A stretch of DNA of 64,000 bases from Prevotella sp. (GTDB lineage: Bacteria > Bacteroidota > Bacteroidia > Bacteroidales > Bacteroidaceae), in the NCBI GenBank assembly GCA_016291085.1, contig JAEEVW010000006.1:1-64000 (forward strand), read 5' to 3'. This document shows, in pieces, positions 10,577 to 64,000 of this stretch. Both the position numbers and the translations under genes were made by a program. Below the pieces are notes generated by a model that searched no databases, was not told the DNA's origin, and saw nothing but the letters and a program-made list of their open reading frames with translations. Positions within the stretch are counted from its first letter, which is position 1. Each line of letters starts with the position of its first letter.

Positions 10577-10619
10577 TCGGATTATATTTGCGATAATCCG
10601 ATTTTTTTTTGTACTTTTG
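10577..10619 (+). promoter_or_regulatory. hsd operon promoter with overlapping palindrome
   Basis: -33 TTTG at 10587-10590 and -7 TACTTTTG at 10612-10619 are 21 bp apart. TCGGATTAT (10577-10585) and ATAATCCGA (10593-10601) form a perfect 9-bp palindrome that encloses the -33 box. A T-tract follows the palindrome, so it could end read-through from upstream, serve as an operator for control of the restriction operon, or both. Confidence 0.75.
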
Positions 10620-10646
10620 CAAAAGACTACCTACAATTATAATTAT

Positions 10647-13231: not shown

Positions 13232-13235
13232 GACG

Positions 13236-14522: not shown

Positions 14523-14523
14523 G

Positions 14524-15447: not shown

Positions 15448-15473
15448 ATAAATAAACTTAAAGCAATAATAAT

Positions 15474-17297: not shown

Positions 17298-17323
17298 AGG
17301 CAATCATAGAAATAGATTAGCAT

Positions 17324-18706: not shown

Positions 18707-18713
18707 TTGACCT

Positions 18714-29396: not shown

Positions 29397-29424
29397 TCAC
29401 CACTCACTATTCACCACTCACCAC
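29397..29424. repeat. Heptamer array at the 3' end of the GH106 gene
   Basis: TCACCAC, TCACTAT, TCACCAC, TCACCAC. The array supplies the stop codon and last residues (SGEW) of the GH106 protein. Confidence 0.8.
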
Positions 29425-31918: not shown

Positions 31919-33045
31919 TTCGTCTGCAGTTTATAATATTCCGTCAGTCCTAACAAATAGCAGCCAGTGCCGTAGTCCTCGAAATCGGGAACGCTGGTAA
32001 AGGTGACGGGCTGTCCGGCTGAGGGGTCTTTGCCCGTGCCTTGATTCCAACCCAGGAAGCCATCTTTATGCATGCACGACTTCAGTGCTGCCCACGCTTT
32101 GTCGCAGGCAGGACGATAGGTCAGGTCTTTCAATAAGCCGTTTTGGATGCCCCATGCCATGCCATAGAGGAACAATGCCGTACCCGTCATCTCAGGGGTG
32201 GGATAGTCTATGTCCGACACGAGACTGGCGTGCCAGAAGCCGTCTTCATGCTGGCAGTGCAACAGCGCCTTACTCATCAGCAGGAAGTCCTTGCGCAGTT
32301 CCTTATATGCCTTGCTCTTGGGCGACAGCTCCTTCATGCATCGCACCAATGCGGCATACACCCAACCGTTGCCTCGACTCCAATAACAGTTCTTGCCATC
32401 CTTCTCCTTATAAGGCGCCACATAGTCCTTGTCGCGCCACCACAGGCCTTCCTTCCCGTTAAAACAACCGCCTCCCAACTCATTGCGCGTCCAGCGGTAA
32501 CTCTTCATGGCATAATCCAGGAAACGCTGGTCGTTCGTTATCGCATACATCTTAACATATACGGGCATCGCCATCTGGATAGCATCGATCCATGTCCACC
32601 AGCCATAGAGGGCACCGCCAGCCTTGGCATTGGGCGTCACCATCTGGTACTCCAGATTCTCCTTGGTGGGTTGCAGCGTACCTTTACCCGTCAGTTGGTT
32701 CAGCTCGATATAGGTCTGCTGGCAGCACTGGTTGTCGGCATTGGTGGCTTTCACGCCACCCCGTGCCTGCCACTGGTGGTGGTTGCACCATTGTTCCGTG
32801 TAGTCCAGATAGCGTTGCTGCGGGTCAATGGTGTAGAGTGCCATCAGTCCCTCGTAATAGACGGCCCGCGTCCATAGGTTGCTCTCGCGCATCCGTCCGA
32901 CATGGGTGGGTAGCGTCGGGTCACTATACTTCGTCATGAAGTAGTCATTCGTTTGGCGGGCTGTCTGTAGCACATCCTGCTGGGCAAAGGCTGTGGCAAA
33001 ACCACAGCATACAAGAGAAAGGAAAAAGAATCGTTTCATTATCAT
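31915..33045 (-). CDS. GH105 unsaturated rhamnogalacturonyl/glucuronyl hydrolase
   Basis: 376 residues with signal peptide (RFFFLSLVCCGFATAFAQ). It is a six-hairpin (alpha/alpha)6 barrel protein of the YteR/YesR type: TRAVYYEGLMALY, YGWWTWIDAIQMAMPVY (the aspartate in WIDA is the likely catalytic residue), WSRGNGWVYAALVRCM, and MTGTALFLYGMAWGI. It removes the 4,5-unsaturated uronic acid left by pectate or rhamnogalacturonan lyases. Start at 33045 shares its A with the stop of GH2 (TAATG); MKRFF at 33039 is an alternative. Together with GH2 and GH106 it suggests stepwise breakdown of rhamnogalacturonan side products in the periplasm. Confidence 0.9.
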   Translation of the reverse strand: MIMKRFFFLSLVCCGFATAFAQQDVLQTARQTNDYFMTKYSDPTLPTHVGRMRESNLWTRAVYYEGLMALYTIDPQQRYLDYTEQWCNHHQWQARGGVKATNADNQCCQQTYIELNQLTGKGTLQPTKENLEYQMVTPNAKAGGALYGWWTWIDAIQMAMPVYVKMYAITNDQRFLDYAMKSYRWTRNELGGGCFNGKEGLWWRDKDYVAPYKEKDGKNCYWSRGNGWVYAALVRCMKELSPKSKAYKELRKDFLLMSKALLHCQHEDGFWHASLVSDIDYPTPEMTGTALFLYGMAWGIQNGLLKDLTYRPACDKAWAALKSCMHKDGFLGWNQGTGKDPSAGQPVTFTSVPDFEDYGTGCYLLGLTEYYKLQTK

Positions 33046-35426
33046 TATTTCGTTTCGAGTTTTGTTGTAATGGTTTTAAAAGTTGCGGGCGATGTTTTCA
33101 GCGTGACCTTTGAGGGTGTCCGCCCTGCACGAAGGATGACCATGGCCTGACCTTGCCACAGACGGCGGTGATTGGTAACGTTCAACTCGTCGCTGTTGAT
33201 GTCACCATTGGTCACAGCCACGATGGTGGCATCGCCCTCGACGTCGAAAGCCAGTTCATCCTGACAGGCCAGTACCCTACGTCCCTTGGCGTCAACAGCG
33301 GTGAGCAGGACGTGTTGCAGGTCTATGCCATCGGCCTTCCAGTAGCTGTTATCCGGTTCGACCACCATCTTGACAGGTTTACCTGTTGTCTCCAAGGCAT
33401 GCCGGGCTACAACCTTACCTTGCTTGTATGCAACAGCCTCCAAGCGTCCTTTCTTATAGTCCACATCGTTCCAGCGAATCTGATTGCGCTGTTTGGCATC
33501 GGTGGGGTTCTGACGACGCCCCAGACTCTTGCCGTTCAGCGTCAGCTCCACTTCGTCGCAGTTGGTATAGACGACGAGATTGGCTTTCGACCCTTCTGGA
33601 CGATTCCACAGTTCCGACTGGCGGTCTGTCCCCGTAATAATACCATTCCACTCTATGCCGCTGTTCTTGTCTTCCACAACCGAGAGCCTCACCATCGGCT
33701 CATCCGTAAAGAACGACTTCATGAAATAGGCCTTTGGCTTGGGTTGCAGATCGATAGTGAACACGCCCTGTGCCCAGCCCTTGGCAGGCCAGCCTTGTGA
33801 TTCTCCCAGATAGTCGATGGCTCCCCAGTAGGCCAGTCCAATGACCTTGTCGAGATTCATCTCGAAGAAGTTCGGTCCCATGGCGGCCGTCGATGCCTCG
33901 CTCTGGTAAAATGTCATCCAAGGGAATCGCCGTCCGTCGCCAGGGAAGTACATATATCTGTAGTTGTAGGCCTGCACGTCGGTCAACATAGCCAAATCGC
34001 AAGGCAACGAATCGGTGTCCCAGTTGCGGTATCGGGGATGCATGGCCACGGTGACCAATCGCGTGGAGTCATAGCGCTGCAATACAGGTCGCATCATCTT
34101 GTAGCACGTCACGCCAAAGTCGTTGAACGGCTGGCTGGCATCTTGCTGCAGTTCGTTGCCCAGACTCCACAGCACGACCGATGGTGAATTCCTGTCGCGC
34201 TTCACCCATTCTGTGACGTCGTGTGCCCAGTGGTTCATAAAAGGTACGCGCCCGCCCGTGTGTTGCAGGGTCCATTTGTCGTACAGCTCGTCAACCACCA
34301 AGATGCCCAACTTGTCACACAGCTTGATGAAGTCACGACTATACGGGTTGTGGCTGGTGCGCACGTGGTTGATACCAAACTGTTTCATCAGCTGTAATCG
34401 CTTCTCGATGGCTCTGGGATAAGCGGCAGCACCCAGTGCGCCTAAGGTGTGGTGGTTGGCATAGCCCTTCAGCAACACCTTCTTGCCATTGAGTTTCAGT
34501 CCGTACTCCGGTCCGATTTCGATGGTGCGAATGCCGAATTCCTCCACATATTCGTCAGCTACAGTGCCATCGCCGTACAACAATTGGGCTACGGCTTTAT
34601 ACAGTTTGGGCGATTCCGTGTCCCACATCTGGGCATCGGCAATCTCCATCTCCTGCGTGGTTATTTCCTGAGTCCGTGCCGGGTTGTTACGCCTCTTGCT
34701 GGCCGTGGTCTCTGCAACCAGTTTTCCGTCGGGGTCGTAGATTTTTACTTTCAGCCCCACCTCCTTGGCCTTGGTGCGGTTGGTGTATTCTGCCGTCAGA
34801 GTGACATAACGATTGTCGCGGGTGGTGATATACAGCGGGTGGCGTTCGAAATACAAATCGGCAGGCGTACTAATCAGGCTGACGTTACGAAACAGTCCTC
34901 CGCCCGTATACCAGCGCGAGTTCTTTTCAGCCATCGTCGAGGCACATACAATAAGTTCGTTATTCCCCGCATGCAACAGTCGTGTAACATCCAGTTCAAA
35001 ACCCACATAGCCGTAGTCCGTTCCTCCGATATGCTGGCCGTTCAGCCATACATCGCCTACCAGCATGATACCCTCGAAATCGAGCAACACCCGTCTTCCG
35101 TCAACTTTCAGCGCACTTCCATCTAACGTCTTTCTGTACCAGCCCTTGCCCATCTCCTTGAAACCACGGGCCGACAGGCGGCTCTTGGTGTTGGCAGCCA
35201 CGTCCCTGTTGTCAGCTTTCTCGTCAGCTGAGGGCACTATCCAAGGCTGTTCAATCTGAAAGTCGTGAGGCACGTTGACGACTCGCACGTTACTGAACAG
35301 CGAGTCGCGCGAAAATTCCCATCCGTCGTTCAGCGAGGTAACACTACGCGACTGAGCGTAGAGTACTAAGGGAATTGATAGCCCCAGAAGAGCTAGCGTG
35401 AACCTAAACTTCGCTATTTGATACAT
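33045..35426 (-). CDS. GH2 family glycosidase (beta-galactosidase/beta-glucuronidase-like)
   Basis: 793 residues from ATG 35426 (MYQIAKFRFTLALLGLSIPLVLYAQ signal peptide); the frame is open further upstream, but that part lacks a signal and overlaps the aldo/keto reductase. The GH2 order is visible: sugar-binding domain (LNDGWEFSRD, VPHDFQIEQPW), Ig-like domain, TIM barrel with NHVRTSHNPYSRDFI and the acid/base NE in VVLWSLGNELQ, then extra C-terminal Ig-like domains (NPTDAKQRNQIRW, YKKGRLEAVAYKQGK). The exact sugar released cannot be told; galactose or galacturonate side chains of pectin fit the context. Overlaps the upstream gene by 13 bp. Confidence 0.9.
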   Translation of the reverse strand: MYQIAKFRFTLALLGLSIPLVLYAQSRSVTSLNDGWEFSRDSLFSNVRVVNVPHDFQIEQPWIVPSADEKADNRDVAANTKSRLSARGFKEMGKGWYRKTLDGSALKVDGRRVLLDFEGIMLVGDVWLNGQHIGGTDYGYVGFELDVTRLLHAGNNELIVCASTMAEKNSRWYTGGGLFRNVSLISTPADLYFERHPLYITTRDNRYVTLTAEYTNRTKAKEVGLKVKIYDPDGKLVAETTASKRRNNPARTQEITTQEMEIADAQMWDTESPKLYKAVAQLLYGDGTVADEYVEEFGIRTIEIGPEYGLKLNGKKVLLKGYANHHTLGALGAAAYPRAIEKRLQLMKQFGINHVRTSHNPYSRDFIKLCDKLGILVVDELYDKWTLQHTGGRVPFMNHWAHDVTEWVKRDRNSPSVVLWSLGNELQQDASQPFNDFGVTCYKMMRPVLQRYDSTRLVTVAMHPRYRNWDTDSLPCDLAMLTDVQAYNYRYMYFPGDGRRFPWMTFYQSEASTAAMGPNFFEMNLDKVIGLAYWGAIDYLGESQGWPAKGWAQGVFTIDLQPKPKAYFMKSFFTDEPMVRLSVVEDKNSGIEWNGIITGTDRQSELWNRPEGSKANLVVYTNCDEVELTLNGKSLGRRQNPTDAKQRNQIRWNDVDYKKGRLEAVAYKQGKVVARHALETTGKPVKMVVEPDNSYWKADGIDLQHVLLTAVDAKGRRVLACQDELAFDVEGDATIVAVTNGDINSDELNVTNHRRLWQGQAMVILRAGRTPSKVTLKTSPATFKTITTKLETK

Positions 35427-36364
35427 TTCAAGTTCTTGTCTAATTGTTCTGTACTGCTGGCACCGACGAGTACTGAGGTGACACCCTGCTGGTCCAGAAT
35501 CCAGCGCAGAGCCTGCTCGGCCAGCGTTCTGCCCTGAGCCTGAGCCTCGCTGTTCCATTGGCGCAGCTGTGCCAGCAGTTCATCGGTGAGCATCTCCTGA
35601 CGCAGGAATTTTCCACGTGCCATGCGCGAGTCGTCAGGAATGCCATTCAGGTAACGGTCCGTCAGTAGTCCCTGTGCCAAGGGTGAAAAGGCAATAAATC
35701 CTACGCCTGCCTGTTGACAGAGATTTAGAATGCCCTCATCGATGGGATTGCGGTGCAGCATATTCAGCTTGCCCTGATAGATGAGCAGGGGAGTGTCGCG
35801 CTGTTTCAGATAGTCGATGGCGAAACGCAAGGGTTCCAGCGGCCAGTTCGAAATACCGACATAGAGTGCCTTGCCTGCGCAGACCATGTCGACCAATGCC
35901 TGCAGGGTTTCTTCCATCGGTGTTTCTGGGTCGTAGCGGTGCGAATAGAACAAGTCCACATAATCCAAGTGCATACGTTTCAGACTCTGGTCGAGCGATG
36001 CCATCAGATACTTTCGTGAACCCCAGTTGCCATAAGGCCCTGCCCACATGTCGTAGCCTGCCTTCGACGAAATGAACAACTCGTCGCGGTAGGGGCGCAG
36101 ATCATCGTCCATCACCCGCCCCAAAGTCTCCTCGGCAGAACCATAGGGGGGACCGTAGTTGTTGGCCAGGTCCAAATGGGTAATACCCTTGTCGAAGGCA
36201 TAGCGCAGAATCTTGCGCGAACGCTGGTAGTCGTCCACCCCTCCGAAGTTATGCCACATGCCCAGACTCACTTTGGGCAACAGAACGCCTGAGCGTCCAC
36301 AACGGTTGTATACCATGCCGTCGTAACGGTTCTCGTCAGCTACATATTCTTCCATACGCGTCAT
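35414..36364 (-). CDS. Aldo/keto reductase, YghZ-like
   Basis: 316 residues. AKR barrel with THLDLANNYGPPYGSAEETLG (D and Y of the tetrad), ISSKAGYDMW (K) and DLFYSHRYDPETPM (H). NADPH-dependent reduction of an aldehyde; relatives act on L-glyceraldehyde 3-phosphate or methylglyoxal. First gene of the operon AKR-GH2-GH105-GH106, so it may reduce an aldehyde sugar intermediate such as one from rhamnose or uronate catabolism; that link is inference. Start at 36364 (or M at 36355). Confidence 0.92.
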   Translation of the reverse strand: MTRMEEYVADENRYDGMVYNRCGRSGVLLPKVSLGMWHNFGGVDDYQRSRKILRYAFDKGITHLDLANNYGPPYGSAEETLGRVMDDDLRPYRDELFISSKAGYDMWAGPYGNWGSRKYLMASLDQSLKRMHLDYVDLFYSHRYDPETPMEETLQALVDMVCAGKALYVGISNWPLEPLRFAIDYLKQRDTPLLIYQGKLNMLHRNPIDEGILNLCQQAGVGFIAFSPLAQGLLTDRYLNGIPDDSRMARGKFLRQEMLTDELLAQLRQWNSEAQAQGRTLAEQALRWILDQQGVTSVLVGASSTEQLDKNLKCIK

Positions 36365-48374: not shown

Positions 48375-51164
48375 CTACCCTTCGAGATCTTTCATGTCGC
48401 GGGGAATCCAGAACCAGAAGGTGGAGCCGATGCCGACGTCGCCCGTGACACCAATCTGTCCGCCACACTTTTCGACAATGGCCTTACAGATGGAGAGTCC
48501 GAGACCTGTGCCCTGCACGAAGTCGTTGAGTTTGACAAAACGCTGGAATACGGAGTCCTGCTTGTCCTTGGGAATGCCGGAACCAGTGTCCTCGCAGTAG
48601 AAATAGAGGCCCTGCTGACCATTGCCGTCATTAGTCACCTCCCCTTGCTCGTTTCTCGTTTGTTGGCAATAGCCGACCTTAATATGTCCCTCGTGGGTGT
48701 ATTTGACGGCATTGGTGACGAAATTGGTGAGCAACTGCTGCAAACGGCCTTTGTCGAGGTGAGCCATGCAGGACGGATAGGGGTTGTCCTTCTGAAACTC
48801 GACGCCAGGTTCCTGCACACGCTGGGCCAGCGTCTGGCAGATATCGTCGAAGACGCGTGAGAGGTCTACCGTTTCAGGGTCAATGGCTAACGACTGCCCC
48901 ATACTGGATGCTTCGAGGATGTCGTTGATGAGTCTGAGCAGCATGTCGCAGTTGTTGCGGATGATGCGGATAAATTCACGACGTTCGCTGTCGTCCTCGA
49001 CCACATTGAGCAGTCCGCTGAAACCTACGATGGCGTTGAGCGGTGTACGGATCTCGTGCGTCATATTGGCCAGGAAAGCTGCCTTCATGCGCCCGGAATC
49101 CTCGGCACGGGAACGCTCTTGGCGTAACTGTTCCTGAGCCCGTATGAGGGCAGTGACGTCGCGCGAAATACCGAAATATTCGGTGAGTTGTCCGTTCTCG
49201 TCGAATATGGGGAAGCCAAAGACGTCGTACCAAGTAGGGGTACTGTCGACCGGTGTACGGTCGAAGAGCATCAGCGTGTTGTAAGCCTTGCCCTGTTGCA
49301 TGGCCTCCTGAATCTCAGCCATAGCGCTTTCCCGGGATTCGTTCTGGATGGAAGCCACATACTGTTCAATGGTTTCCGTATATTCCGCCTCTCCGGGGGT
49401 ACGCATGAGGGTGACGACATTCTCAGCTGGACGGTAGCTCCAAACAAATATCTGACATTCCTCGAGCAGGTAGCCGAGTTGCTGCTGGTACTGCTTGATG
49501 GCTTCGTTGACGGTCTGCAACTTGCGGTCGTGCCGACGCTGTTCCAGATACATGTCGCGCTCGGCAGACACGTCGCGGGCGGTGGCAACATAGTAGACCA
49601 GACGGTCGGAGTCGTCGATGACGGGACGGATGCGCGTCTCGATATAGGTATCGACACCCAGAGAGGGGTACTGCAAAAGCCGACAGATATGGAGCGACTC
49701 ACGGGTGCCGGGGTAGAAATCTCCCTGATAGCCTGGGTCGTCGAATATTGACATCTTGCGGAAGAATTCTTCACCCATGTCATCAATATGGCACAATTCG
49801 CGCATCTTCTGGTTGTAGTCGAGCAGATGGCCTTCAGGGTCATAGAATGACATGGCAATGAGATTGGTATCGAAAATCTTGCGGTAGCGATTACCCAACA
49901 GACGGTTGTGCTGCTCTTCCTCCAATTCCCGGGTGACGTCACGGCCACTGTAGATGATGTGACGGGGCTTACCGCCTTCACGTTCTATAATGGCTCCACC
50001 AAAGATATCGAGCCACTTAGGTTCATCGCTGGTGCCCATATTCACACGATACTGGTATTCGGTCGAGTCAATCTCGCCTGCCTTCATGCTTTCGTTGAGA
50101 TTATGCAGCTGAAGGGCCTGTCCCTCGGCCATGCGTTTCAGGAACTCCTGTGCAGGCATCGGTTCGTAGGGCAGCAGATGACCATAGCGGTTGTGCAGCA
50201 TGTAGTTGCTGACGTCAAGTTCCACCACATAGAATTCACCCATACTGAGCGCCTTGTCCATCATCTGGTAAATGTCTTTATTTCTGCGGACGGCAGATTT
50301 GACACGCAACACCGTCAGACGGCTCAGCAGGAAGGCCACCAATCCCAAAACGACCAAACCGATGAGGATGATGATGGCAATAGGCGATGCATCGTCGTGA
50401 ACACGCTCAGGATGGAACCATTTATCGTAGATGGCCTGCAACTCGCCAGCCTGTTCCAGGCGGGTGAACTCGTCATCGATGATGTCGATAATCTCCTTGT
50501 CGTAGCCGATGATGCGCAACTCTCCGGCAGGAATGTCAATGCGGTCGAGCAGCAGGCTGTCGAAATGGAACTCCTGAATTTTTCGTTTGAGGGGTTCCTC
50601 GCCCCAGATGAAATAATTGTAACGCTTGTTGCGAACAGCCATGAGGGCCTCCTTCGGAGAATAATACTTGACTGCGAAGTTCGAGTCGCCGCGTTCCTGA
50701 ATCTGCCAGGCAGCATAATCGGCACGTTTGACGAGTATGGTGTCGCCCTTAGTCAGATCAGCAATACGCGACAGGGGCGGTGTATCGATGTGACGGACGA
50801 CACGCAGGTTGTAATAGTTGATGTATTTCTGTGTTGCGACAAACGGGCGTCGCTTGTAGAGATAGGACAAGGCATGAATGAGGTCAGCGTCATGGTGTTC
50901 GAACATCATCGTGGCCTCGTGCCACTCCTGCGTCACAAACTTATGGGGAATGTCCAGACGGTTCAGAATCAAGTCGAGGACATCGACATTATATCCAGAT
51001 GGCTGGCCATTGGAATCGAGGAATTCGAAAGGTCGGAAATCCCAGTCGCAGACGATGGTCAGCGGGTGATGCTCGGTGTAACCATAGAATTCCTTGGCCT
51101 CAGCCGAAGAAACAGGCCAGAGACACAGCAGGACAAGCAGTATGTCGTAGAATCGTTTGTTCAT
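48375..51164 (-). CDS. Sensor histidine kinase with periplasmic SBP domain (active type, H703)
   Basis: 929 residues, fourth gene of the kinase operon. Signal peptide; SBP_bac_3-like periplasmic domain about 28-255 (CDWDFRPFEFLDSNGQPSGYN); one membrane helix about 260-285; three PAS-like domains; then HisKA with NMTHEIRTPLN (H703) and a complete HATPase (N-box LLTNFVTNAVKYT, G1 EDTGSGIPKD, G2 GTGLGLSICKAIVEKCGG). It probably senses a small molecule such as an amino acid and autophosphorylates. No receiver or output domain, and no response regulator gene in the operon. Paralogue of the 53988-56051 kinase. Confidence 0.92.
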   Translation of the reverse strand: MNKRFYDILLVLLCLWPVSSAEAKEFYGYTEHHPLTIVCDWDFRPFEFLDSNGQPSGYNVDVLDLILNRLDIPHKFVTQEWHEATMMFEHHDADLIHALSYLYKRRPFVATQKYINYYNLRVVRHIDTPPLSRIADLTKGDTILVKRADYAAWQIQERGDSNFAVKYYSPKEALMAVRNKRYNYFIWGEEPLKRKIQEFHFDSLLLDRIDIPAGELRIIGYDKEIIDIIDDEFTRLEQAGELQAIYDKWFHPERVHDDASPIAIIILIGLVVLGLVAFLLSRLTVLRVKSAVRRNKDIYQMMDKALSMGEFYVVELDVSNYMLHNRYGHLLPYEPMPAQEFLKRMAEGQALQLHNLNESMKAGEIDSTEYQYRVNMGTSDEPKWLDIFGGAIIEREGGKPRHIIYSGRDVTRELEEEQHNRLLGNRYRKIFDTNLIAMSFYDPEGHLLDYNQKMRELCHIDDMGEEFFRKMSIFDDPGYQGDFYPGTRESLHICRLLQYPSLGVDTYIETRIRPVIDDSDRLVYYVATARDVSAERDMYLEQRRHDRKLQTVNEAIKQYQQQLGYLLEECQIFVWSYRPAENVVTLMRTPGEAEYTETIEQYVASIQNESRESAMAEIQEAMQQGKAYNTLMLFDRTPVDSTPTWYDVFGFPIFDENGQLTEYFGISRDVTALIRAQEQLRQERSRAEDSGRMKAAFLANMTHEIRTPLNAIVGFSGLLNVVEDDSERREFIRIIRNNCDMLLRLINDILEASSMGQSLAIDPETVDLSRVFDDICQTLAQRVQEPGVEFQKDNPYPSCMAHLDKGRLQQLLTNFVTNAVKYTHEGHIKVGYCQQTRNEQGEVTNDGNGQQGLYFYCEDTGSGIPKDKQDSVFQRFVKLNDFVQGTGLGLSICKAIVEKCGGQIGVTGDVGIGSTFWFWIPRDMKDLEG

Positions 51165-51171
51165 TGCGTGG

Positions 51172-53991
51172 TCACATTATTGTTTTTCTCACTAACTCGC
51201 TGCACTTGCAGGGGATGGATATCCAGACGACAGTACCCGTCGTTGCATCGGATTTGATACGAATCCTACCCCCCATTTGCCGAACGAGTTCGTTACAGAT
51301 ACTCATCTCAAGGCCAGTACCATGTTCTTGTGTCTGAACGAAGCGGTCGAAAATATGGGGAAGGATCTCCTCAGGGATGCCGCCATCAGAAGCATGCAGG
51401 GCAATCACCAAGTCTTCTCCCGTATAGTCGCAACAGACACGCACCTGCCCTTCCTTCGTAAAGAAGGCCGCATTAGACACCAACCGATCTATCACAATAC
51501 CCAAATTCTGTGCATCCACCTCAACCACGAGATGTTCATAAGGATTCTCGACGAAATAGCTGACACCAGGCAACTGATATTGGGTGAAAGCCGCCTGACA
51601 GCGTGACTGCAAGTCCGCACAAATGTCGGTCATCTGCGGTTTAATCTCTATCATCTGTGCATCGAGTCGAGACAAGAAGAGAATGTCGTTAATGAGTGTC
51701 AGCAGACGCTCGGAATTGTCACTGATCTCGCGGATAAAGAGTGCTTCGTCCTCCTTGGAATGCTCCTGTTCGAAGAGGTTGGAGAATCCTACCACTGAGT
51801 TCAATGGGGTGCGGATTTCGTAGCTCATGTTATGGAGGAAGGCATTCTTTACCGTCTCCACCTCCTGGGCTTTGCTGGTCTCCCGAGCCAAAGCCTCCTC
51901 CATAGCCATCAACTCGCTGATGTCGCGACACATACCGAAATAGCTCGTCACTTCACTGTCGGTGCCGATGACGGGAATAAACGACAGATGCAGGTAGAGC
52001 GGGTTGCCATCCTTGACGCGCAGTGTCGTCTTCAGAGTCGTGTCGATAGGCTGTCGCGAGCGGTTGTCCATTGCATTCAACCCGCGTTGTGCTGTCTTTT
52101 TCGACTCGTCGTCGAGCAGGGAGAGACAGCGCGTCTGGGTGAAGCGGTACTGTTCGTGGCCTATCTGGCTGTAGATGACCAACATGTGGGTATCCGGCGA
52201 GTAGTCTGTCATACGCACACCACCATGCTGCAGCACAAAGTCAATATTGCGGATGTAAGTCTGCATCTCGTCGTTAGCTTGTTCGAGCTTGGCCACATTC
52301 TGACGTAGCTGGTTGTAGGTCTTGGCCACTTCCGTCACATCGCGTCCTGTACCATAGACTGCCTGCAACTTGCCTTCATCATCACGGACAGGAACCAACT
52401 GCAGTTCGTAAAGCAATTCCGGGCGTTGCAGGAATTTGTTCAGCGCACGATCGTCAGGACCCTTGAAAATCTGAGTCAGATAGGTGTAGTCGATGTTTGC
52501 AGTGTCTACATCGTCTTTTCCTAACACCTCTTTGAGGGTGACGCGCGATTCAAGGACCTTGTCAAAGTTTCCCTTAAAGGCAGACATCGCTTTCTGGTTC
52601 ATGCCGATAATGACACCGTTTTCATCGTAAGCCACCGCATCAATCATCGATGATTCAAAGATGGACTGATAGCGCAGCATGGTGTCCTTGACCTGCTGCT
52701 GACGGCGTTTCTCGTCAGTAACGTCAGAGATGGTGCCAATAAGCACTTCAGGCTGTCCGTTCTTGTCGCAATGCAGCACAGATATCTCGACGGTGAGATA
52801 ACGATGTCCTAAGTGGGAATCTGGTCTTGACTGCACGTCAAGAGTTACTTTCTCCTGCTCCTGACGGGCAACCTGTTGCAGGGCGTCGATGACGGGGGTG
52901 CGGTATTCTTCCTTTAAGGGTTGGATGAACACGTAAGGCAAGATTCCCTCAGCCTCGAAGCGTCCGTCTGAGTCGAGGCGGGTAACGGTCCTGGTTTTCA
53001 AGACATAAAGGAAGATACGCACATGACTGGTTTTCAGAATCAGTGCCAAACGGTCGTTGCCCACCCGGATGTCCTTGGTCATGCGCTTCTCGTAACGGCG
53101 ATAGACCAGATAGTAACCCAAGAAGAAGAGTGTCAGCAATAGCGTAACGATAATAGCCTGCCAAATCCAGCTCGGCACACCCGATTCCGTACGTTCCGGA
53201 TAGAACCACTTGTTCTGTATGGCCTGCAGACGTCCCGAAGCGTTCAGTCCGGCATAGACGCTGTCCATCTTGTGAAGCAGAGCGAGGTCATGCGACATGA
53301 ACTTGTATTCCCCGTGAGGCACATTGACGGGCGTCAGTTCCAGATTGTCATATTGGAACTTATTGATGAGCCACTTCAGACAGAGCGTGTTCCACACAAT
53401 CTGCTGGTCGGGCTTGTTGTGAACCAACTGTACGGCCTCGCGCATGTCGTCGATGGCGATGGCATTGTCACCCCAACCGCGCTGAACCATAAACATATGA
53501 CTGAAACTGCCCCCGTGGACAATGACCTTATGGTGCGCCAAATCCTCATACGTCTTAATGGTCTGCGGTTCACCCTTCCTATAAACCACGCTATGGGTAA
53601 AAATCTGGACCACCGACTTGCCATAGGTGGCATAATCGTCGTGCAAATGGTCTTCCATACCAATCTTCAGGTCGCAACGTCCCGCCTTCAAATCCTCCAA
53701 GGCCTCCCGGGTATGTTTCAGCTTGACGACATACGGGATATCGAGTTCCTGGAAAATCATCTTCAGCAAATCGACGTTGTAACCCACCGCCTCGCCATTC
53801 TCGTTCAGAAAGACATAGGGCCACAAGTCCCAGGCATCTTCGTAAACGAGGGGATTGTCTTCCGTGTACACCCTGACAGAGTCCTTGTCTGCAGCCATAG
53901 CCGAGAGACAGGAACCTGTGAGAAGCCCCAGCAACAGGAACGTTCCCAGCCACCTCTTGGGAATCATTATACAGCGTCTGTCTTGTTTCAT
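51172..53991 (-). CDS. Sensor pseudokinase with periplasmic SBP domain (Tyr724 replaces the phospho-acceptor His)
   Basis: 939 residues, third gene of the operon. Signal peptide, SBP_bac_3-like domain (about 35-265, YPYVFLNENGEAVGYNVDLL-type core read as WPYVFLNENGEAVG), membrane helix SWIWQAIIVTLLLTLFFLGY, PAS domains, then HNMSYEIRTPLN: the histidine position is Y724 (codon 51820-51822, TAC). The ATPase part is altered: G1 reads ASDGGIPEE instead of DTGxGIPEE, and G2 is GTGLEMSIC. It probably cannot autophosphorylate and may control its neighbour as a partner. ATGA overlap with the gene before it and 7 bp to the next. Paralogue of 56078-58225. Confidence 0.92.
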   Translation of the reverse strand: MKQDRRCIMIPKRWLGTFLLLGLLTGSCLSAMAADKDSVRVYTEDNPLVYEDAWDLWPYVFLNENGEAVGYNVDLLKMIFQELDIPYVVKLKHTREALEDLKAGRCDLKIGMEDHLHDDYATYGKSVVQIFTHSVVYRKGEPQTIKTYEDLAHHKVIVHGGSFSHMFMVQRGWGDNAIAIDDMREAVQLVHNKPDQQIVWNTLCLKWLINKFQYDNLELTPVNVPHGEYKFMSHDLALLHKMDSVYAGLNASGRLQAIQNKWFYPERTESGVPSWIWQAIIVTLLLTLFFLGYYLVYRRYEKRMTKDIRVGNDRLALILKTSHVRIFLYVLKTRTVTRLDSDGRFEAEGILPYVFIQPLKEEYRTPVIDALQQVARQEQEKVTLDVQSRPDSHLGHRYLTVEISVLHCDKNGQPEVLIGTISDVTDEKRRQQQVKDTMLRYQSIFESSMIDAVAYDENGVIIGMNQKAMSAFKGNFDKVLESRVTLKEVLGKDDVDTANIDYTYLTQIFKGPDDRALNKFLQRPELLYELQLVPVRDDEGKLQAVYGTGRDVTEVAKTYNQLRQNVAKLEQANDEMQTYIRNIDFVLQHGGVRMTDYSPDTHMLVIYSQIGHEQYRFTQTRCLSLLDDESKKTAQRGLNAMDNRSRQPIDTTLKTTLRVKDGNPLYLHLSFIPVIGTDSEVTSYFGMCRDISELMAMEEALARETSKAQEVETVKNAFLHNMSYEIRTPLNSVVGFSNLFEQEHSKEDEALFIREISDNSERLLTLINDILFLSRLDAQMIEIKPQMTDICADLQSRCQAAFTQYQLPGVSYFVENPYEHLVVEVDAQNLGIVIDRLVSNAAFFTKEGQVRVCCDYTGEDLVIALHASDGGIPEEILPHIFDRFVQTQEHGTGLEMSICNELVRQMGGRIRIKSDATTGTVVWISIPCKCSELVRKTIM

Positions 53992-56051
53992 GAGGCAACG
54001 GGTTTTTCTTTTACTTCACGCACTTCGACTGGTATCCAGAACCAGAACACAGATCCCTCATTAACCTCACTCTCCAGGCCAATCTCACCGCCACACTTCT
54101 CGACAATAGCCTTACAAATGGGCAGGCCCAAACCCGTTCCCTGCACATAATCGTTCAGTTTAACGAAACGTTCGAAGATGGCTGCATGCTTGTCCTTGGG
54201 AATACCCGAGCCCGTATCCTCGCAATAGGCATACAATCCCTGCTGGCCATGGCGTTCTTCCAGGCGGTATCCGATACGGATATGGCCCTGATGGGTGTAT
54301 TTGACGGCATTGGTCACGAAATTGGTAATCACCTGATTGATGCGGTCGCTGTCCAGTCGTGTCTGTAATACCTCGTAGGGATTGTCAGTCTGGAACTCGA
54401 CGGTAGGCTCCTGCACACGCTGGGCCAGCGTTTTGGCAAGTTCTTCGAAGTCGTGTGAGGCATCGACGTCGTGGGGAATGATCTCCATTGCGTTGGCATC
54501 CATATTACTGAGCACCAGAATGTCGTTGATGAGTCGCAACAGCATGTCGCAGTTGTTATGGATGACGCGAATCATCTCGCGCTTGTCGTCAGGCGACTCG
54601 ATGGCCTGCAGCAAGTCGGTAAATCCGACAATGGCATTCAGCGGGGTACGGATTTCGTGCGTCATATTTGCCAGGAACACTGACTTCAGACGTCCGGAGT
54701 CGTTGGCACGTTCCGTCTCGCGCTTCAACTGCTCCTGCTTCTCCATCATACCCGATATGTTTCGTATCAGTCCGAAGGCTTCCTTCACCTCTCCCTTTTC
54801 ATTATAGACGGGGATGTTGTTGATTTGGTTCCATTGTATTTCGTGACCCTCATGGAACACAGGACGCATCTCAGCCATATAGCCCATGGGTTGCGAGAAG
54901 TAGGTGTAAGGATCCTGGAAGCCCAGACGCAGCATCTCCGGCTCGTTGACGAAATGCGACTCAACCTCGTCGAACGACATTTCGAGTTCCACGGTTCCCA
55001 GACCCTTGTAGAAACGTACCACACGCTCGTCGAAGAACAGTCGGAAGGCACGCATGTCGCAAGCCTCCATCATATAGCGAAGCTCCTCCTCGTAACGCAT
55101 GATTTCGTTGTTCACTTTCTGGATTTCCAAGTCGTTTTGCTTCGCCTGCAGATACATTTCTCGCTCTCCAGTCACATTACGTACTGCAAGGGCGATGTTC
55201 AGGAGCTTTCCCTCGTCGCTATACAGCGGATAGACGTGTAATTCCAGATAGTCATGCAAACCACGTTCAGGGACGATACTCTGAACACAAGCCCACACTT
55301 CCTCGACATTGTTCTTGTCCAGAATCTCGTTGAACGGCATAGCGTCGAAGAGATTCGTATTCGAGAAATGCTCGTCGTAGGTGTCGCTGTCGAAATGACA
55401 GATTTCACGCATAATCTTATTGGCATCCAACAGCCATCCGTCAGGACTGTAGAACGAAAGACCGACGATGGAATGCTCAAAGACCTGGCGGTACTTATCC
55501 GTCAGTTCTTCCTCCCTGATTTCCTGCTCGCGCAGCTCCGTCTCGTCGCGCAATGTGCTGATGATACTCTGGGGGGTGTTCGTACCAGGTGTCATTTCCA
55601 CCACGCTCACATTGTGCATATAGCCCCACTGGGGCTGTTCGCCATTGAAGTCGAAATTCCAGCGATAGAAGAACTCGTCGCGCGCTACCTTGCCCGACAT
55701 CATCCGGCGAAAATGCCGCAACGTCTCCTCCAAGTCATCGGGATGCACATGGCTTTTCCATTCTTCCGACGTCATTATTCTGTCGGGGAAGATATGTCCG
55801 TAGAGCTGGTAGATATATCCTTCGCGAATCACAAAGCGCACCACATTGCTGGCGCTGATTTGCACCGCCTGTTCCATCATCTTACCCGTAAACGTGGTTT
55901 CTGCCATGCGCTTGCGCACACGTCTCACCACCAGGCGGTTCTGGATGAGCATGCCCAGAAAGGCCAGCGCCACCAACACACAAATCAACGTGGGGACGAA
56001 CTCAAATGTCCAAGCGGCTGCTAATATAAATAGGTATGCGTACGTAGTCAT
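53988..56051 (-). CDS. Membrane PAS sensor histidine kinase without periplasmic domain (active type, H465)
   Basis: 687 residues, second gene of the operon. Two closely spaced N-terminal membrane helices (about 3-36), then PAS domains (YQLYGHIFPDRIMTSEEW, VGLSFYSPDGWLLDANKIM, and one with FFDERVVRFYKGLG), HisKA NMTHEIRTPLN (H465) and a complete HATPase (N-box ITNFVTNAVKYT, G1 EDTGSGIPKD, G2 GTGLGLPICKAIVEKCGG). It resembles the 48375-51164 kinase from the PAS region on but lacks the substrate-binding-protein domain. 26 bp separate it from the gene before it. Confidence 0.92.
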   Translation of the reverse strand: MTTYAYLFILAAAWTFEFVPTLICVLVALAFLGMLIQNRLVVRRVRKRMAETTFTGKMMEQAVQISASNVVRFVIREGYIYQLYGHIFPDRIMTSEEWKSHVHPDDLEETLRHFRRMMSGKVARDEFFYRWNFDFNGEQPQWGYMHNVSVVEMTPGTNTPQSIISTLRDETELREQEIREEELTDKYRQVFEHSIVGLSFYSPDGWLLDANKIMREICHFDSDTYDEHFSNTNLFDAMPFNEILDKNNVEEVWACVQSIVPERGLHDYLELHVYPLYSDEGKLLNIALAVRNVTGEREMYLQAKQNDLEIQKVNNEIMRYEEELRYMMEACDMRAFRLFFDERVVRFYKGLGTVELEMSFDEVESHFVNEPEMLRLGFQDPYTYFSQPMGYMAEMRPVFHEGHEIQWNQINNIPVYNEKGEVKEAFGLIRNISGMMEKQEQLKRETERANDSGRLKSVFLANMTHEIRTPLNAIVGFTDLLQAIESPDDKREMIRVIHNNCDMLLRLINDILVLSNMDANAMEIIPHDVDASHDFEELAKTLAQRVQEPTVEFQTDNPYEVLQTRLDSDRINQVITNFVTNAVKYTHQGHIRIGYRLEERHGQQGLYAYCEDTGSGIPKDKHAAIFERFVKLNDYVQGTGLGLPICKAIVEKCGGEIGLESEVNEGSVFWFWIPVEVREVKEKPVAS

Positions 56052-56077
56052 ATCATATATGGAAAAGCATAACGGGG

Positions 56078-58225
56078 TTATTCAATCAATTCACGGCGTC
56101 TCTCAATCACAGAAGCTTCACAGGGAATGACGACCCAGACGGTAGTACCCTTGCCGACTTCCGACTGCAACTCGATGCTTCCGCCCATCTGTTCCACGAG
56201 TGTCTGTGCGATGGGCAGGTCGAGACCCGTTCCACAGAGTTCCTCGCGCTGGTCGCGCACAAAGCGTTCGAACACATGAGGTAGGGTTTCCTTGTCAATG
56301 CCACGTCCGGTGTCCTCGACGACAACCGACAAATGGCCTTTTCTGTATTCTGCCTTGACGTGGATAGAGCCTTTCTGAGTGAAATTAACGGCAGTGCTGC
56401 AAACTCTCTGTATCACCTTGCCGACATGCTCCGTATCGATGTTCACCAAGAGTCGCTCGAAGGGATTCTCCACTTGCACTCTCACCTCTGGCGACACATT
56501 CACCAGTCCCAGCTGGCACCAGCTCTCGAAGAGCATGGCGAAGTCCGTCTCTTCCTTCTTATACTCTATCATGTTGGCATCCAGTCGCGACAGGAACAGA
56601 ATGTCGTTGACCAGCGACAGCAGACTGTTGCTGTTGCGGCGTATCTCCTCAACAAACAGCGGTTCGTCAGCCACGTCGTGCTCTGACTCAAAGAGTTCGG
56701 CAAAGCCCACCACGGTGTTCAACGGCGTACGAATCTCGTAACTCATATTGGTCAGGAAGGCCTGTTTCAGTAGCTCTGTCTCCTGAGCCTTCTTGGTCTC
56801 TATCGCCAACCGGTGCTCCGTTTCCACCATCTGCGTCATGTTACGGCACATGCCGAAGTATCGCTCTACCCTGCCCTGCTCATCTTTCATTGGCACCATG
56901 TTAAACAGCAGCCACACGGGACGATGCTGCTTGTCGCGAATCTCCGTTTCGAACAACACTTCCAACGGAAGTTCCGTCCGGTGGTCCATACGGTTCAGCG
57001 CACTGGAGATGGCTCGACGGAAACGAGGCGTTCCCAATCGGATACAACGCAACTGCGACAGATGCATCTGCGTCTCGTTGATATTGCTGGAAACCTCCAT
57101 CGTATGAGTCGATGGGTTGTAGTTCGCCAGTCGCACATCGCTCACCTGCAGCGCATAGTTCACGTTATCGATGTACGTTTTGATGTCCTTGGTTATCTGG
57201 CGCAACTTCTTGAAACCTTCCTGCTGGCGGTGGAACGACTCCACCATTTCCGTCACGTTACGGCCGGCCATGTAGACGCCCTCCAACTCGCCGTTTTCAT
57301 TACGGATGGGGTTGAAGGTCGATTCATAATACTGCACTCCAGGAAGAGCATACCGATTTACACGCGATGTCGGATTACGAAGTTTGGCAAAGTTGGTTCT
57401 CGACGAACTGCGGGTATTTTCCAACTGATGAAAATCCTCGCCGCTATAGAAAGGGTTGTCCTGCAACAGGAAATCACCATTCAGCAATTCCTCACGGTTC
57501 TTATAGCCGAACTCCGAGCAGGCTCTTTCGTTGATGTCGTTCAGCACGCCATACTTGTCGTAGAATACCATATCTAGCAACGGTGAATTAAACACGGTAT
57601 GATAGCGCAGCAACAACCGCTTCACCGTTTCGCGGCGCCTCACATCGTCCGTTACGTCATGCATGATACACAGCAAATCCTCTATTTCCATACGGTTCCG
57701 CCTGCGGGCTACACTCACCGAGATGTCAAACACGTCGCGCGTGTCGTCTTCCTTCAGCACACCACGCACCCTGACACTGGCCGTACGGATGCGCTCCTCG
57801 CAGATGTCGAACACCAACTTGCGAAGCTGCTCGAAATCGTCGCGGTCGAACAATTCGGCAAACTCAACGGGGTTATACTCTTTCGAATACTCACCGTTCT
57901 CGTTTAGGAATATGTAATGCCGGCGCCGCACATTATAGAAACACAGCCGCAGACTACTGGTCTGCAACACCAGCGACAATCGTGCATATTGGCTCAAACC
58001 CTGCGTCTTGGCATCTTGTTCCCTATAGTGATAAACAAAATTATAGAACAGCAAAACAAAGAATCCAATGAGGAATGCAGCCAACACATACACCGTCACA
58101 TGCTCAAAGTCAAACAGTTTCCCGAAGGTTTGCATCACCTGCGCCGATAAGGCCTGTGGGCCTGTTAGCAACAGACTGGTCGCCAACATCCGAAATGCGA
58201 TATTTTTGCTCTGTTCTAGGTTCAT
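56078..58225 (-). CDS. Membrane PAS pseudokinase (Tyr496 replaces His; N-box Asn is Thr611)
   Basis: 715 residues, first gene of the operon. One or two N-terminal membrane segments (MLATSLLLTGPQALSA and YVLAAFLIGFFVLLFYNFVYHY), PAS domains, then TNMSYEIRTPLN with Y496 (codon 56738-56740). The HATPase has a normal G1 (EDTGRGIDKE) but the N-box reads RVCSTAVNFT, with T611 where the Mg-ATP-binding Asn should be, and G2 is GTGLDLPIA. Both changes argue against catalysis. Sequence resembles the 51172-53991 pseudokinase. It probably works as a regulatory partner or as a sensor passing signals to the adjacent kinases. Confidence 0.92.
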   Translation of the reverse strand: MNLEQSKNIAFRMLATSLLLTGPQALSAQVMQTFGKLFDFEHVTVYVLAAFLIGFFVLLFYNFVYHYREQDAKTQGLSQYARLSLVLQTSSLRLCFYNVRRRHYIFLNENGEYSKEYNPVEFAELFDRDDFEQLRKLVFDICEERIRTASVRVRGVLKEDDTRDVFDISVSVARRRNRMEIEDLLCIMHDVTDDVRRRETVKRLLLRYHTVFNSPLLDMVFYDKYGVLNDINERACSEFGYKNREELLNGDFLLQDNPFYSGEDFHQLENTRSSSRTNFAKLRNPTSRVNRYALPGVQYYESTFNPIRNENGELEGVYMAGRNVTEMVESFHRQQEGFKKLRQITKDIKTYIDNVNYALQVSDVRLANYNPSTHTMEVSSNINETQMHLSQLRCIRLGTPRFRRAISSALNRMDHRTELPLEVLFETEIRDKQHRPVWLLFNMVPMKDEQGRVERYFGMCRNMTQMVETEHRLAIETKKAQETELLKQAFLTNMSYEIRTPLNTVVGFAELFESEHDVADEPLFVEEIRRNSNSLLSLVNDILFLSRLDANMIEYKKEETDFAMLFESWCQLGLVNVSPEVRVQVENPFERLLVNIDTEHVGKVIQRVCSTAVNFTQKGSIHVKAEYRKGHLSVVVEDTGRGIDKETLPHVFERFVRDQREELCGTGLDLPIAQTLVEQMGGSIELQSEVGKGTTVWVVIPCEASVIERRRELIE

Positions 58226-58265: not shown

Positions 58266-58297
58266 CAAAGATAGGCAAAAATGTGACAATCTCCAAA
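58266..58297 (-). promoter_or_regulatory. Promoter of the four-kinase operon
   Basis: Minus strand: -7 TATCTTTG (58266-58273) and -33 TTTG (58294-58297), 20 bp apart, 41 bp before the first kinase ATG. No other clear promoter is seen between the four genes. Confidence 0.8.
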
Positions 58298-62683: not shown

Positions 62684-64000
62684 TTACTCTCTAGACTTAT
62701 TTTCGTTCATGTATTCACGCGGCGACATTCCGTAGAACTTCTTGAAGATCGTAGAGAAGGATGCGGCATTATTAAATCCGCAGGCATACATCACTTCGGT
62801 GATATTCATGTTCTGCGACGACAACAGATGTGCAGCCTGTTTCAGACGAATGTTACGAATAAAGTCATGGGGCGTCTGACCCGTCAGTTCTTTCATCTTA
62901 CGATGCAAATGAACACGGCTGATGCCTACCTCGTCGGCAATGCTGTCGACACTAAGGTCAGAATTGCTGATATTCTTGTTGATAACCTTCATGACACGAT
63001 CCAGCAGTTGTTCATCGGGTGACTTCATCTTCACCTGTTCTACCTGCTCCTCCAGCTGATCGTTGCGGCCATATTTCAGACGCAGCATCTGGTGGGTATG
63101 GATGAGGTTAATGATGGTACGACGAAGAATGTCCATGTTGAATGGCTTCAGAAGATAGGCGTCGGCTCCAGTCTCAAGACCCTCCAGACGATCCTCGTCG
63201 CGACTCTTGGCAGTGAGAAGAATGACAGGAATATGACTGGTCGTAGGACTGCTCTTGATTTTCGAGCACATCGTATTGCCATCCATTTCAGGCATCATGA
63301 CATCGGAAATAACCAAGTCGGGAATCATCTTGAATACCTCGCTGAGTCCAGCCTTTCCATTGTCGCAAGTAGTAATATCATAGTCGTGCGACAGTTCGCT
63401 TTCCAGGAAGCCACGAATCTCCGCGTCATCCTCAACGATGATGATGTGCTGCCGACGGTTGGCCTTGAGCACCTCTTCGGGTACTTCATCGTTTTCTTCA
63501 ACGGGTACTTCTTCCATCAAACTGGTGACGGGTTCACTCTTCGGAGATACTTCCTCCTCAATCATTTCCTCAGGTTTCAAGTGGGCAGAACCCAACGGAA
63601 TAGTCACCACAAACTCACAACCTTTCTCATCAATATTATTATGAGCCTCAATGGTGCCGTGATGCAATTCCACCAGCGAACGTGTCAAGTCAAGACCGAT
63701 GCCGGTACCTGTCTTACGGTCGTTTACATGAGAAGGTGTCTGGTAGAAACGTTCAAAAATACGATCGAGTTTATCTTCGGGAATACCTTCACCCGTGTCC
63801 TTAATAGCCAGTCTGACATGTTGCTGGTCATGGGTAATGACAATGCGGATTTCACCCCCCGCCGGTGTGAATTTGAAGGCGTTCGACAACAGATTGACGA
63901 TGACCTTGTCGAAGTTATCGCGATCAATCCATACAGGCAGTTCCTGCGTGTCGTGCTCGTAAGTAAACCTCACGTTCTTCGACTTGGCCTGTTGGGTAAA
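62684..64000 (-). CDS. Hybrid two-component regulator (HTCS), C-terminal part; 5' end beyond window
   Basis: The frame is open to the window edge, so the Y_Y_Y periplasmic sensor and HisKA lie outside. Visible in order: HATPase (IVNLLSNAFKFTPAGGEI, KDTGEGIPEDKLDRIFERFYQ, GTGIGLDLTRSLVELHHG), linker, receiver (HIIIVEDDAEIRGFL, phospho-acceptor D in DLVISDVMMPEMDG, K in LLKPF), AraC HTH (SVDSIADEVGISRVHLHRKMKELTG, MYACGFNNAASFSTIFKKFYG). This is the Bacteroidetes hybrid regulator that controls glycan-use loci. Its target is probably a neighbouring locus to the right. Confidence 0.95.
   Translation of the reverse strand, partial: FTQQAKSKNVRFTYEHDTQELPVWIDRDNFDKVIVNLLSNAFKFTPAGGEIRIVITHDQQHVRLAIKDTGEGIPEDKLDRIFERFYQTPSHVNDRKTGTGIGLDLTRSLVELHHGTIEAHNNIDEKGCEFVVTIPLGSAHLKPEEMIEEEVSPKSEPVTSLMEEVPVEENDEVPEEVLKANRRQHIIIVEDDAEIRGFLESELSHDYDITTCDNGKAGLSEVFKMIPDLVISDVMMPEMDGNTMCSKIKSSPTTSHIPVILLTAKSRDEDRLEGLETGADAYLLKPFNMDILRRTIINLIHTHQMLRLKYGRNDQLEEQVEQVKMKSPDEQLLDRVMKVINKNISNSDLSVDSIADEVGISRVHLHRKMKELTGQTPHDFIRNIRLKQAAHLLSSQNMNITEVMYACGFNNAASFSTIFKKFYGMSPREYMNENKSRE

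What the first reader, a model, noticed from the sequence alone, without database searches (positions are those of the whole stretch)
48375..58225. Four-gene sensor operon alternating histidine kinases with Tyr-for-His pseudokinases
Read directly: gene order is pseudokinase (Y496), kinase (H465), pseudokinase (Y724), kinase (H703), all on the minus strand with 26 bp, -4 bp and 7 bp junctions and one promoter. In both Tyr proteins the H-box reads NMSYEIRTPLN instead of NMTHEIRTPLN. They also carry different second lesions (T611 in the N-box of one; the G1 Asp of the other replaced by Ala). The two His proteins keep all boxes. Paralogy follows the same alternation, so an A/B pair was duplicated, and one pair has periplasmic SBP domains while the other does not. 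No receiver domain or response regulator is present. This suggests an obligate kinase/pseudokinase heteromer that signals to an unlinked partner.
Basis: partly seen in the sequence, partly recalled or inferred. Interest (0 to 1): 0.85.

Follow-up and report, generated by a model that had tools for sequence, protein, structure and literature searches.

The report
Paired kinase and pseudokinase sensor operon
A Prevotella-like bacterium carries a four-gene operon in which sensor kinases with all their catalytic motifs alternate with sister proteins that have lost the phosphate-accepting histidine; in related genomes the two kinds lie side by side and have diverged in step as pairs, so each pair likely works as one mixed receptor in which one half does the chemistry and the other adds a second input.

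Summary
In detail: four minus-strand genes, Tyr-His-Tyr-His at the H-box, junctions 26/-4/7 bp, one Bacteroides-type promoter. Call the two kinds B (first, His-less) and A (second, His). They form two sister clades. In a sample drawn with a whole B protein, not with the H-box (regions from 61 genus genomes plus eight other loci), 110 of 113 B cores have an A beside them and every B-A neighbour pair runs B first. A has all scored catalytic motifs in 110 of 111 scorable cores; B in 6 of 113. Partners of each B clade form the matching A clade (107 of 108 pairs), so the couple was duplicated as a unit. The residue at the H position of B is Tyr 71, Gln 14, His 14, Phe 9, others 5: Tyr is not needed as such, and 'Tyr is conserved' fails in part. 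B1/B2 keep the dimerisation helices about as conserved as A but let the ATPase domain drift. Natural A1=B2 fusions exist. Best reading: a co-inherited kinase/pseudokinase heteromer; A phosphorylates, B is a second sensor. Heterodimerisation, ligands and the unlinked response regulator are inferred and untested. New family of a known kind (compare DivL, RocA, FasBC).

The parts
58266..58297 (-). Bacteroides-type promoter match TTTG-N20-TATCTTTG upstream of the first gene
   Evidence: the only match within or just before the operon on this strand
56078..58225 (-). B1: PAS-HisKA-HATPase_c protein, 715 aa, Tyr496 at the phosphoacceptor position, no solute-binding domain
56738..56740 (-). codon of Tyr496 (H-box NMSYEIRTPLN)
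56393..56395 (-). codon of Thr611 in place of the N-box Asn of B1
53988..56051 (-). A1: PAS-HisKA-HATPase_c kinase, 687 aa, His465, all scored motifs present
54657..54659 (-). codon of His465
51172..53991 (-). B2: SBP_bac_3-PAS-HisKA-HATPase_c protein, 939 aa, Tyr724; overlaps A1 by 4 bp
53203..53823 (-). solute-binding domain of B2 (residues 57-263)
51820..51822 (-). codon of Tyr724
51391..51393 (-). codon of Ala867 in place of the G1 Asp of B2
48375..51164 (-). A2: SBP_bac_3-PAS-HisKA-HATPase_c kinase, 929 aa, His703, all scored motifs present
50412..51062 (-). solute-binding domain of A2 (residues 35-251)
49056..49058 (-). codon of His703

Best explanation
The operon encodes two co-inherited pairs of sensor proteins, each made of a histidine kinase with all its catalytic motifs (A) and an upstream sister that has lost the acceptor His (B), and the two members of a pair likely join through their dimerisation helices into one mixed receptor. 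Shown by sequence: the order B then A, the common ancestry and joint duplication of the couple, the loss of His and/or ATPase motifs in B, the conserved helices of B1/B2, the different signatures of the two solute-binding domains. Inferred: A and B heterodimerise; A is the only phosphoryl donor; B adds a second input through its own sensor domains and sets A's kinase/phosphatase balance; in the four-gene form the two pairs sit in one larger complex, as natural A1=B2 fusions suggest; the signal leaves to an unlinked response regulator.
For: In 88 loci not chosen by the H-box, 110 of 113 B cores have an A beside them; neighbours run B->A 110 times, A->B 27 times, A=B fused twice, never A->A or B->B; median B-A gap 6 bp. 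A has all scored motifs in 110 of 111 scorable cores, B in 6 of 113. B is one clade (supports 99, 100, 99 in three trees), and in the tree with the mixture model A is its sister. Partners of the four B clades (3, 36, 48, 21 pairs) form the matching A clades except one pair. DHp helices of B1/B2 are about as conserved as in A (0.69, 0.68 against 0.71, 0.74) while the ATPase domain has drifted (0.45, 0.48 against 0.70, 0.71). All four window genes are under like purifying selection, dN/dS 0.09-0.11. 37 of 120 listed B2 relatives are single chains A1=B2 with His in every A half. B and A solute-binding domains each keep their own signature. FasB-FasC is a measured precedent for two operon-encoded kinases that heterodimerise and not homodimerise (PMC12675982, passages).
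Against: No interaction was measured or modelled. Operon neighbours share history, so co-inheritance does not prove contact. Six of 113 B proteins have His and all scored motifs, so some may be active kinases. B3 keeps ATPase motifs but lets the helices drift (DHp 0.50, CA 0.61), the opposite of B1/B2, so one mechanism may not fit all B. The fusions join A1 to B2, not the two members of one couple. In the ChrS-HrrS precedent the truncated pseudokinase itself showed no heterodimer signal in two-hybrid assays (PMC9491836, passages).
Confidence: 0.6

Rival explanations
1. DivL-like regulator: B forms its own homodimer, binds a phosphorylated response regulator or the A homodimer, and tunes A allosterically without mixed A-B dimers.
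For: DivL is a Tyr-for-His pseudokinase that keeps its other motifs, dimerises and reads a response regulator (PMC4211667, passages). The helices of B1/B2, which would also be the docking surface, are conserved.
Against: Tight B-then-A coupling, joint duplication without partner exchange in 107 of 108 pairs and A1=B2 fusions point to a fixed partner kinase. None of this excludes a homodimeric B that binds A.
Confidence: 0.2
2. Split kinase: B supplies the working ATPase domain that phosphorylates the His of A in trans, and A supplies the acceptor.
For: 51 of 62 B2 and 18 of 18 B3 keep the scored ATPase motifs although most lack His. In FasBC the kinase domain of one partner is dispensable and the His lies in the other (PMC12675982, passages); CheA3/CheA4 is a split kinase (PMC3591291, abstract).
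Against: A keeps its own ATPase motifs in 110 of 111 and does not need a donor. B1 lacks the last G2 Gly in 120 of 120 and the N-box Asn in 80 of 120 listed relatives. The ATPase domain of B2 drifts, also in the window's B2, whose G1 is broken.
Confidence: 0.12
3. B is a tyrosine autokinase: Tyr takes the phosphate in place of His.
For: Tyr is the commonest residue (71 of 113), and the whole H-box around it is kept.
Against: Phe, Gln, Glu, Gly, Lys or Asn stand there in 28 of 113, and 32 of 33 B1 cores have a degenerate or (one) unreadable ATP site. DivL with Tyr showed no autophosphorylation in vitro (PMC4211667, passages).
Confidence: 0.03
4. B is a decaying duplicate without a function.
Against: dN/dS of B1 and B2 is 0.105 and 0.094, like A; the deepest B branch already lacks His and the gene has persisted with conserved helices and sensor signature.
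Confidence: 0.02

Closest known systems
FasB-FasC of group A Streptococcus (two operon-encoded sensor kinases)
   Same: Two adjacent kinase-like genes in one operon; heterodimer but no homodimer in two-hybrid tests; unequal roles of the two (PMC12675982, passages)
   Different: The Fas operon includes its response regulator; FasC is reported to use its His and FasB is not described in the passages as His-less. Sensor domains there are six membrane helices; here solute-binding and PAS domains
DivL of Caulobacter (pseudo-histidine kinase)
   Same: PAS domains and a HisKA/ATPase core with Tyr in place of His (PMC4211667, passages); B1 matches its solved core 4q20 at E 6e-23
   Different: 4q20 ranks behind ordinary kinases such as 4jas (1e-25) for B1, so B is no close kin. 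DivL keeps its other motifs and, in alphaproteobacteria, its Tyr nearly throughout; in B the residue varies. Its partner kinase CckA is not an operon neighbour (recalled)
RocA-CovS and ChrS-HrrS pseudokinase cases
   Same: A catalytically dead kinase relative acts through a working kinase (PMC7028121 and PMC9491836, passages)
   Different: RocA still has a His at the site that can be removed without effect; the ChrS case arose in laboratory evolution. Neither passage set describes a clade of co-inherited couples
CheA3/CheA4 split kinase of Rhodobacter
   Same: Kinase functions divided between two proteins in a complex (PMC3591291, abstract)
   Different: Here A retains both acceptor and ATPase motifs, so nothing is strictly split
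Histidine kinases with periplasmic solute-binding sensors (3h7m; BvgS, EvgS)
   Same: Solute-binding domain outside, PAS, HisKA and ATPase inside; 3h7m is the best solved match of both domains by sequence and by predicted fold
   Different: Those are single kinases; BvgS and EvgS also carry receiver and Hpt parts (recalled), absent here

Membership tests
HisKA sensor histidine kinases (A1, A2) | HisKA and HATPase_c domains over the Pfam cut-offs with His and N, G1, G2 motifs | tested here: met
HisKA sensor histidine kinases (B1, B2) | Phosphoacceptor His in the H-box | tested here: not met
   Tyr496 and Tyr724
HisKA sensor histidine kinases (B1, B2) | N, G1 and G2 motifs of the ATPase domain | tested here: not met
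   Thr611 and GTGLDL in B1; ASDGG and GTGLEM in B2. Most other B2 do keep them (51 of 62)
Pseudo-histidine kinases (lacking one or more functions, as in PMC12632262) | Kinase fold with a lost phosphorylation site or catalytic motif | tested here: met
   sequence motifs only; no enzyme assay
DivL | Orthology to alphaproteobacterial DivL | tested here: not met
   solved DivL core 4q20 ranks eighth of 24 matches of B1, behind ordinary kinases
DivL | Binding of a phosphorylated response regulator, action on a partner kinase | not testable with these tools
   needs binding assays
Heterodimeric sensor kinases (FasBC type) | Two kinase genes adjacent in one operon | tested here: met
Heterodimeric sensor kinases (FasBC type) | Physical heterodimer, no homodimer | not testable with these tools
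   no complex prediction was on offer; two-hybrid needed
Split kinases (CheA3/CheA4 type) | Acceptor and ATPase roles on separate proteins | tested here: not met
   A keeps both (110 of 111 scorable cores)
Curated NCBIfam kinase families | Score above a curated cut-off | tested here: not met
   none of the 25 best shown for each of the four proteins (of 74-78 found) reaches its cut-off

The most novel reading that the evidence does not exclude
Prevotella evolved an obligate heterodimeric sensor kinase: an ancestral kinase was duplicated, one copy gave up its phosphoacceptor and became the dedicated second sensor, and the couple has since been inherited and duplicated as one indivisible receptor, in its largest form a B1-A1-B2-A2 assembly whose middle two subunits are fused in some lineages, reading two periplasmic ligands and cytoplasmic cues into a single phosphoryl output.
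Probability: 0.45. Interest if true: 0.78.

Novelty: new variant of a known kind. Interest (0 to 1): 0.62.

Why it matters
Histidine kinases are generally described as homodimers, and the exceptions that I saw in the papers are single cases. Here a whole clade looks like inherited kinase/pseudokinase couples: an A side whose motifs hardly vary, a B side in which His was lost and in places may have come back, and natural fusions. If the heteromer is real, these natural variants make it testable what a pseudokinase subunit contributes and whether one active subunit per dimer suffices for regulated signalling. It also matters for annotation: all four proteins pass the ordinary kinase models.

Tried and rejected
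Tyrosine kinase reading: rejected because a residue other than Tyr or His stands at the site in 28 of 113 B cores. Wide spread in the phylum: not seen; the exact motif NMx[YF]ExRTP turned up outside the genus only in G263 (L145, a 1082-aa kinase with Phe that the tree puts outside A and B) and G640 (L146, a 488-aa kinase with Tyr and no second kinase in the 15 kb fetched). Linked regulator: none in the window; an AraC-type regulator follows the operon directly in 28 of 86 loci and sugar-kinase genes of the rhamnose type often come next, but the window has only a ribosomal-protein gene there (rpsO, by recall), so no rhamnose link is claimed. tRNA and Rfam: nothing. Ligand: both solute-binding domains fold like amino-acid binders, but their pocket residues are their own, so no ligand is named. 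Ordinary sigma-70 scan: no more than chance. Structure prediction of an A1=B2 fusion was considered and not run, because contacts could not have been read from the output.

Literature: no paper in the held library holds Prevotella, histidine kinase and pseudokinase together; none of the titles listed concerns this operon. Seen: passages of PMC4211667, PMC9491836, PMC12675982, PMC7028121; passages and section 6 of PMC12632262; outline and abstract of PMC3591291; all others as listings only.

The sample was drawn with the whole B2 protein instead: 63 of 150 genus genomes matched; I fetched 80 regions from 61 of them (all but the window's own genome and G1059), chosen from a printed list that the tool cut short; weaker contigs such as G946:C80 and G992:C14 were not fetched; eight earlier loci were added. 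Five A fragments were left out of the motif count; fragments and cores under 200 residues were left out of trees; L145 was left out of the co-inheritance count and of the last tree. The first co-inheritance script failed on a name and was rerun; the one pair that breaks the match was not followed up; the distance correlation used 60 of 108 pairs. My simple gene caller chose antisense frames in L068 and L187, so 'B without A' or 'A without B' there is not established; L054 holds an A relative without a B beside it.
Full report
What is there. Four minus-strand genes lie in 48375-58225, in order of transcription B1 (56078-58225), A1 (53988-56051), B2 (51172-53991) and A2 (48375-51164), with junctions of 26, -4 and 7 bp. 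All have HisKA and HATPase_c domains over the Pfam cut-offs and PAS matches; B2 and A2 add SBP_bac_3. B1 and B2 have Tyr at the phosphoacceptor position (Y496, Y724), A1 and A2 have His (H465, H703). One perfect Bacteroides-type promoter match precedes B1, and none lies inside the operon. The neighbours are frr, divergent and upstream, and rpsO, downstream (names by recall from the sequences). No receiver domain is linked.

Kinship in the genome. B1-B2 37%, A1-A2 39%, B1-A1 29%, B2-A2 26% identity. The genome has 20 HisKA matches, among them a further couple on contig C56 whose first member has Gln at the H position.

Relatives. Of 151 genomes of the family searched with B1, 31 have a match at E <= 1e-30, many of them ordinary kinases; outside the genus, B relatives beside an A were found in G063 and G042, with Gln. 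Of 150 genomes of the genus, 63 have a match to B2 at E <= 1e-80, so the system is patchy. A scan of named contigs gave 80 loci, with titles of Prevotella, Prevotellaceae, Bacteroidales or Xylanibacter ruminicola. In the 89 loci L051-L139, 143 of 149 B cores are followed at once by an A; the four-gene order is the commonest, in 54 of 89 by my count of the list, two more with extra genes. In the 88 loci of the H-box-independent set, 110 of 113 B cores have an A beside them; neighbours run B->A 110 times, A->B 27 times, fused A=B twice, never A->A or B->B, and the median B-A gap is 6 bp. The three exceptions are a broken gene (L171) and two B genes at or near contig ends (L176, L222).

What B has lost. 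In that set B carries Tyr 71, Gln 14, His 14, Phe 9, Glu 2, Gly 1, Lys 1, Asn 1 of 113; A carries His in 114 of 116, the others being a kinase from another family (L145) and a truncated relic (L150). Scoring His, the N-box Asn, G1 Asp and Gly and two G2 Gly together, A is complete in 110 of 111 scorable cores and B in 6 of 113. Subtypes differ. B1: ATP site degenerate or unreadable in 32 of 33; among the 120 listed relatives of B1, itself included, Tyr in all 120, N-box Asn lost in 80, last G2 Gly lost in 120. B2: His lost in 54 of 62, scored ATPase motifs kept in 51 of 62. B3: His lost in 17 of 18, scored ATPase motifs kept in 18 of 18. Among 120 listed relatives of B2, itself included, 114 have Tyr, 4 Phe and 2 His, both of these with Gln in place of the next Glu. 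These lists hold only the best 120 of 1683 and 2013 hits.

History. In a FastTree tree of 296 cores and one of 236 with outgroup kinases, B is one side of a branch (supports 99 and 100); in the second, A is not, because L145 joins an outgroup row. A mixture-model tree of 67 chosen rows without L145 gives B 99, A 99 and A+B 94. The deepest B branch has Phe, Phe, Tyr. With equal costs the simplest history in the first tree is one loss of His at the base of B and nine returns, against eleven steps if the base had His; if a return costs five times a loss, repeated loss is preferred. The returns are therefore likely at best, not shown. Of 108 adjacent pairs, the partners of the four B clades (3, 36, 48, 21) fall in matching A clades except one, and A and B distances of 60 sampled pairs correlate at 0.85 (Spearman). 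Joint duplication follows; physical contact does not, since operon neighbours share history anyway.

Constraint. Mean pairwise identity of the DHp helices (H position left out) is 0.69 and 0.68 in B1 and B2 against 0.71 and 0.74 in A1 and A2; of the ATPase domain 0.45 and 0.48 against 0.70 and 0.71. The ratio is 0.65 (bootstrap 0.62-0.69) and 0.70 (0.68-0.73) against 1.00 (0.97-1.02) and 0.96 (0.94-0.98). In 1262 of 1326 comparisons between 52 matched operons the ratio is higher in A2 than in B2; the comparisons are not independent. B3 is the reverse (0.50 and 0.61, ratio 1.23). Against the orthologues in L147 all four window genes show dN/dS 0.09-0.11. So B is not simply decaying; what B1 and B2 keep is the part that dimerises and docks.

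Sensors. The solute-binding domains of B and A differ in conserved signature: W-N-T/S in B2/B3 (Asn in 72 of 72) and W-G-E in A2/A3 (Gly 60, Glu 52 of 68); elsewhere A has Glu in 64 of 68 where B mostly has Ser, Val or Ala. Both predicted folds (mean pLDDT 88.6 and 89.4) are closest to the kinase sensor domain 3h7m, then to amino-acid binders. Ligands are unknown.

Fusions. 37 of the 120 listed B2 relatives are single chains of A1 followed by B2, with His in all 37 A halves. In context they were seen in L081, L082, L088 and L090, three of them with B1 before, all four with an A after. They tie the two couples together but do not say which subunits dimerise. A fusion of B to its own A would have been too long for the protein searches; none was seen among the loci.

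Mechanism. I commit to an A-B heteromer, likely a heterodimer through the DHp helices, with A as phosphoryl donor and B as second sensor and modulator (0.6). A DivL-like homodimer (0.2) and a split kinase with B as enzyme (0.12) remain. Known parallels are DivL (PMC4211667), RocA-CovS (PMC7028121), ChrS-HrrS (PMC9491836) and above all FasB-FasC (PMC12675982), all seen as passages. His-less HisKA domains make up 0.9% in one published count (PMC12632262, section 6) against 99 of 113 in this clade.

Verdict. New variant of a known kind.

Noticed in passing
L110, L111, L113, L114, L115 (L111: Xylanibacter ruminicola): B2 here has His and the scored ATPase motifs, while B1 of the same operons has Tyr and no N-box Asn: a natural contrast for testing what His loss does.
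   Followed up: partly
L055, L056, L057, L126, L128, L136, L180, L185, L186, L194 and others (B3 type): A third couple whose B has Gln, Glu, Gly or Lys at the H position; its helices have drifted while its ATPase domain is conserved, the reverse of B1/B2.
   Followed up: partly
   Followed up: partly
L150:5452-7902: Two adjacent shortened relics, one B-like (411 aa) and one A-like (400 aa), both without the ATPase part, between complete couples.
   Followed up: no
L146:7035-8501 (G640): A 488-aa kinase of another class of the phylum with NMSYEIRTPLST and otherwise intact scored motifs, without a partner kinase in the 15 kb fetched: an independent Tyr-for-His case.
   Followed up: partly
L145:4396-7644 (G263): A 1082-aa kinase with NMSFEIRTPINA, outside the A and B clades, downstream of an open kinase frame with His.
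   Followed up: no
L051:3393-4262 and 27 other loci: An AraC-type regulator (HTH_18, AraC_binding) follows A2 directly on the same strand in 28 of 86 loci, often before rhamnose-type sugar genes; absent behind the window's operon.
   Followed up: partly
window 62684-64000, continuing to about C43:66743: A separate hybrid kinase of about 1350 aa with HisKA, receiver and a C-terminal regulator part, on the same strand as the operon.
   Followed up: no
window 10617-22034: A type I restriction-modification set (methyltransferase, specificity, restriction subunit) with further defence-model matches (PDC-S04, HEC-06/Orf5, PDC-S05) between its genes.
   Followed up: partly
window 29411-36364: Carbohydrate genes in a row: GH106 rhamnosidase-type, GH88, GH2 and an aldo/keto reductase.
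   Followed up: no
G000:C26:47016-48002: A 369-aa open frame matches only residues 14-342 of B2 (sensor and membrane part) at 44%: a possible B sensor without a kinase half.
   Followed up: no
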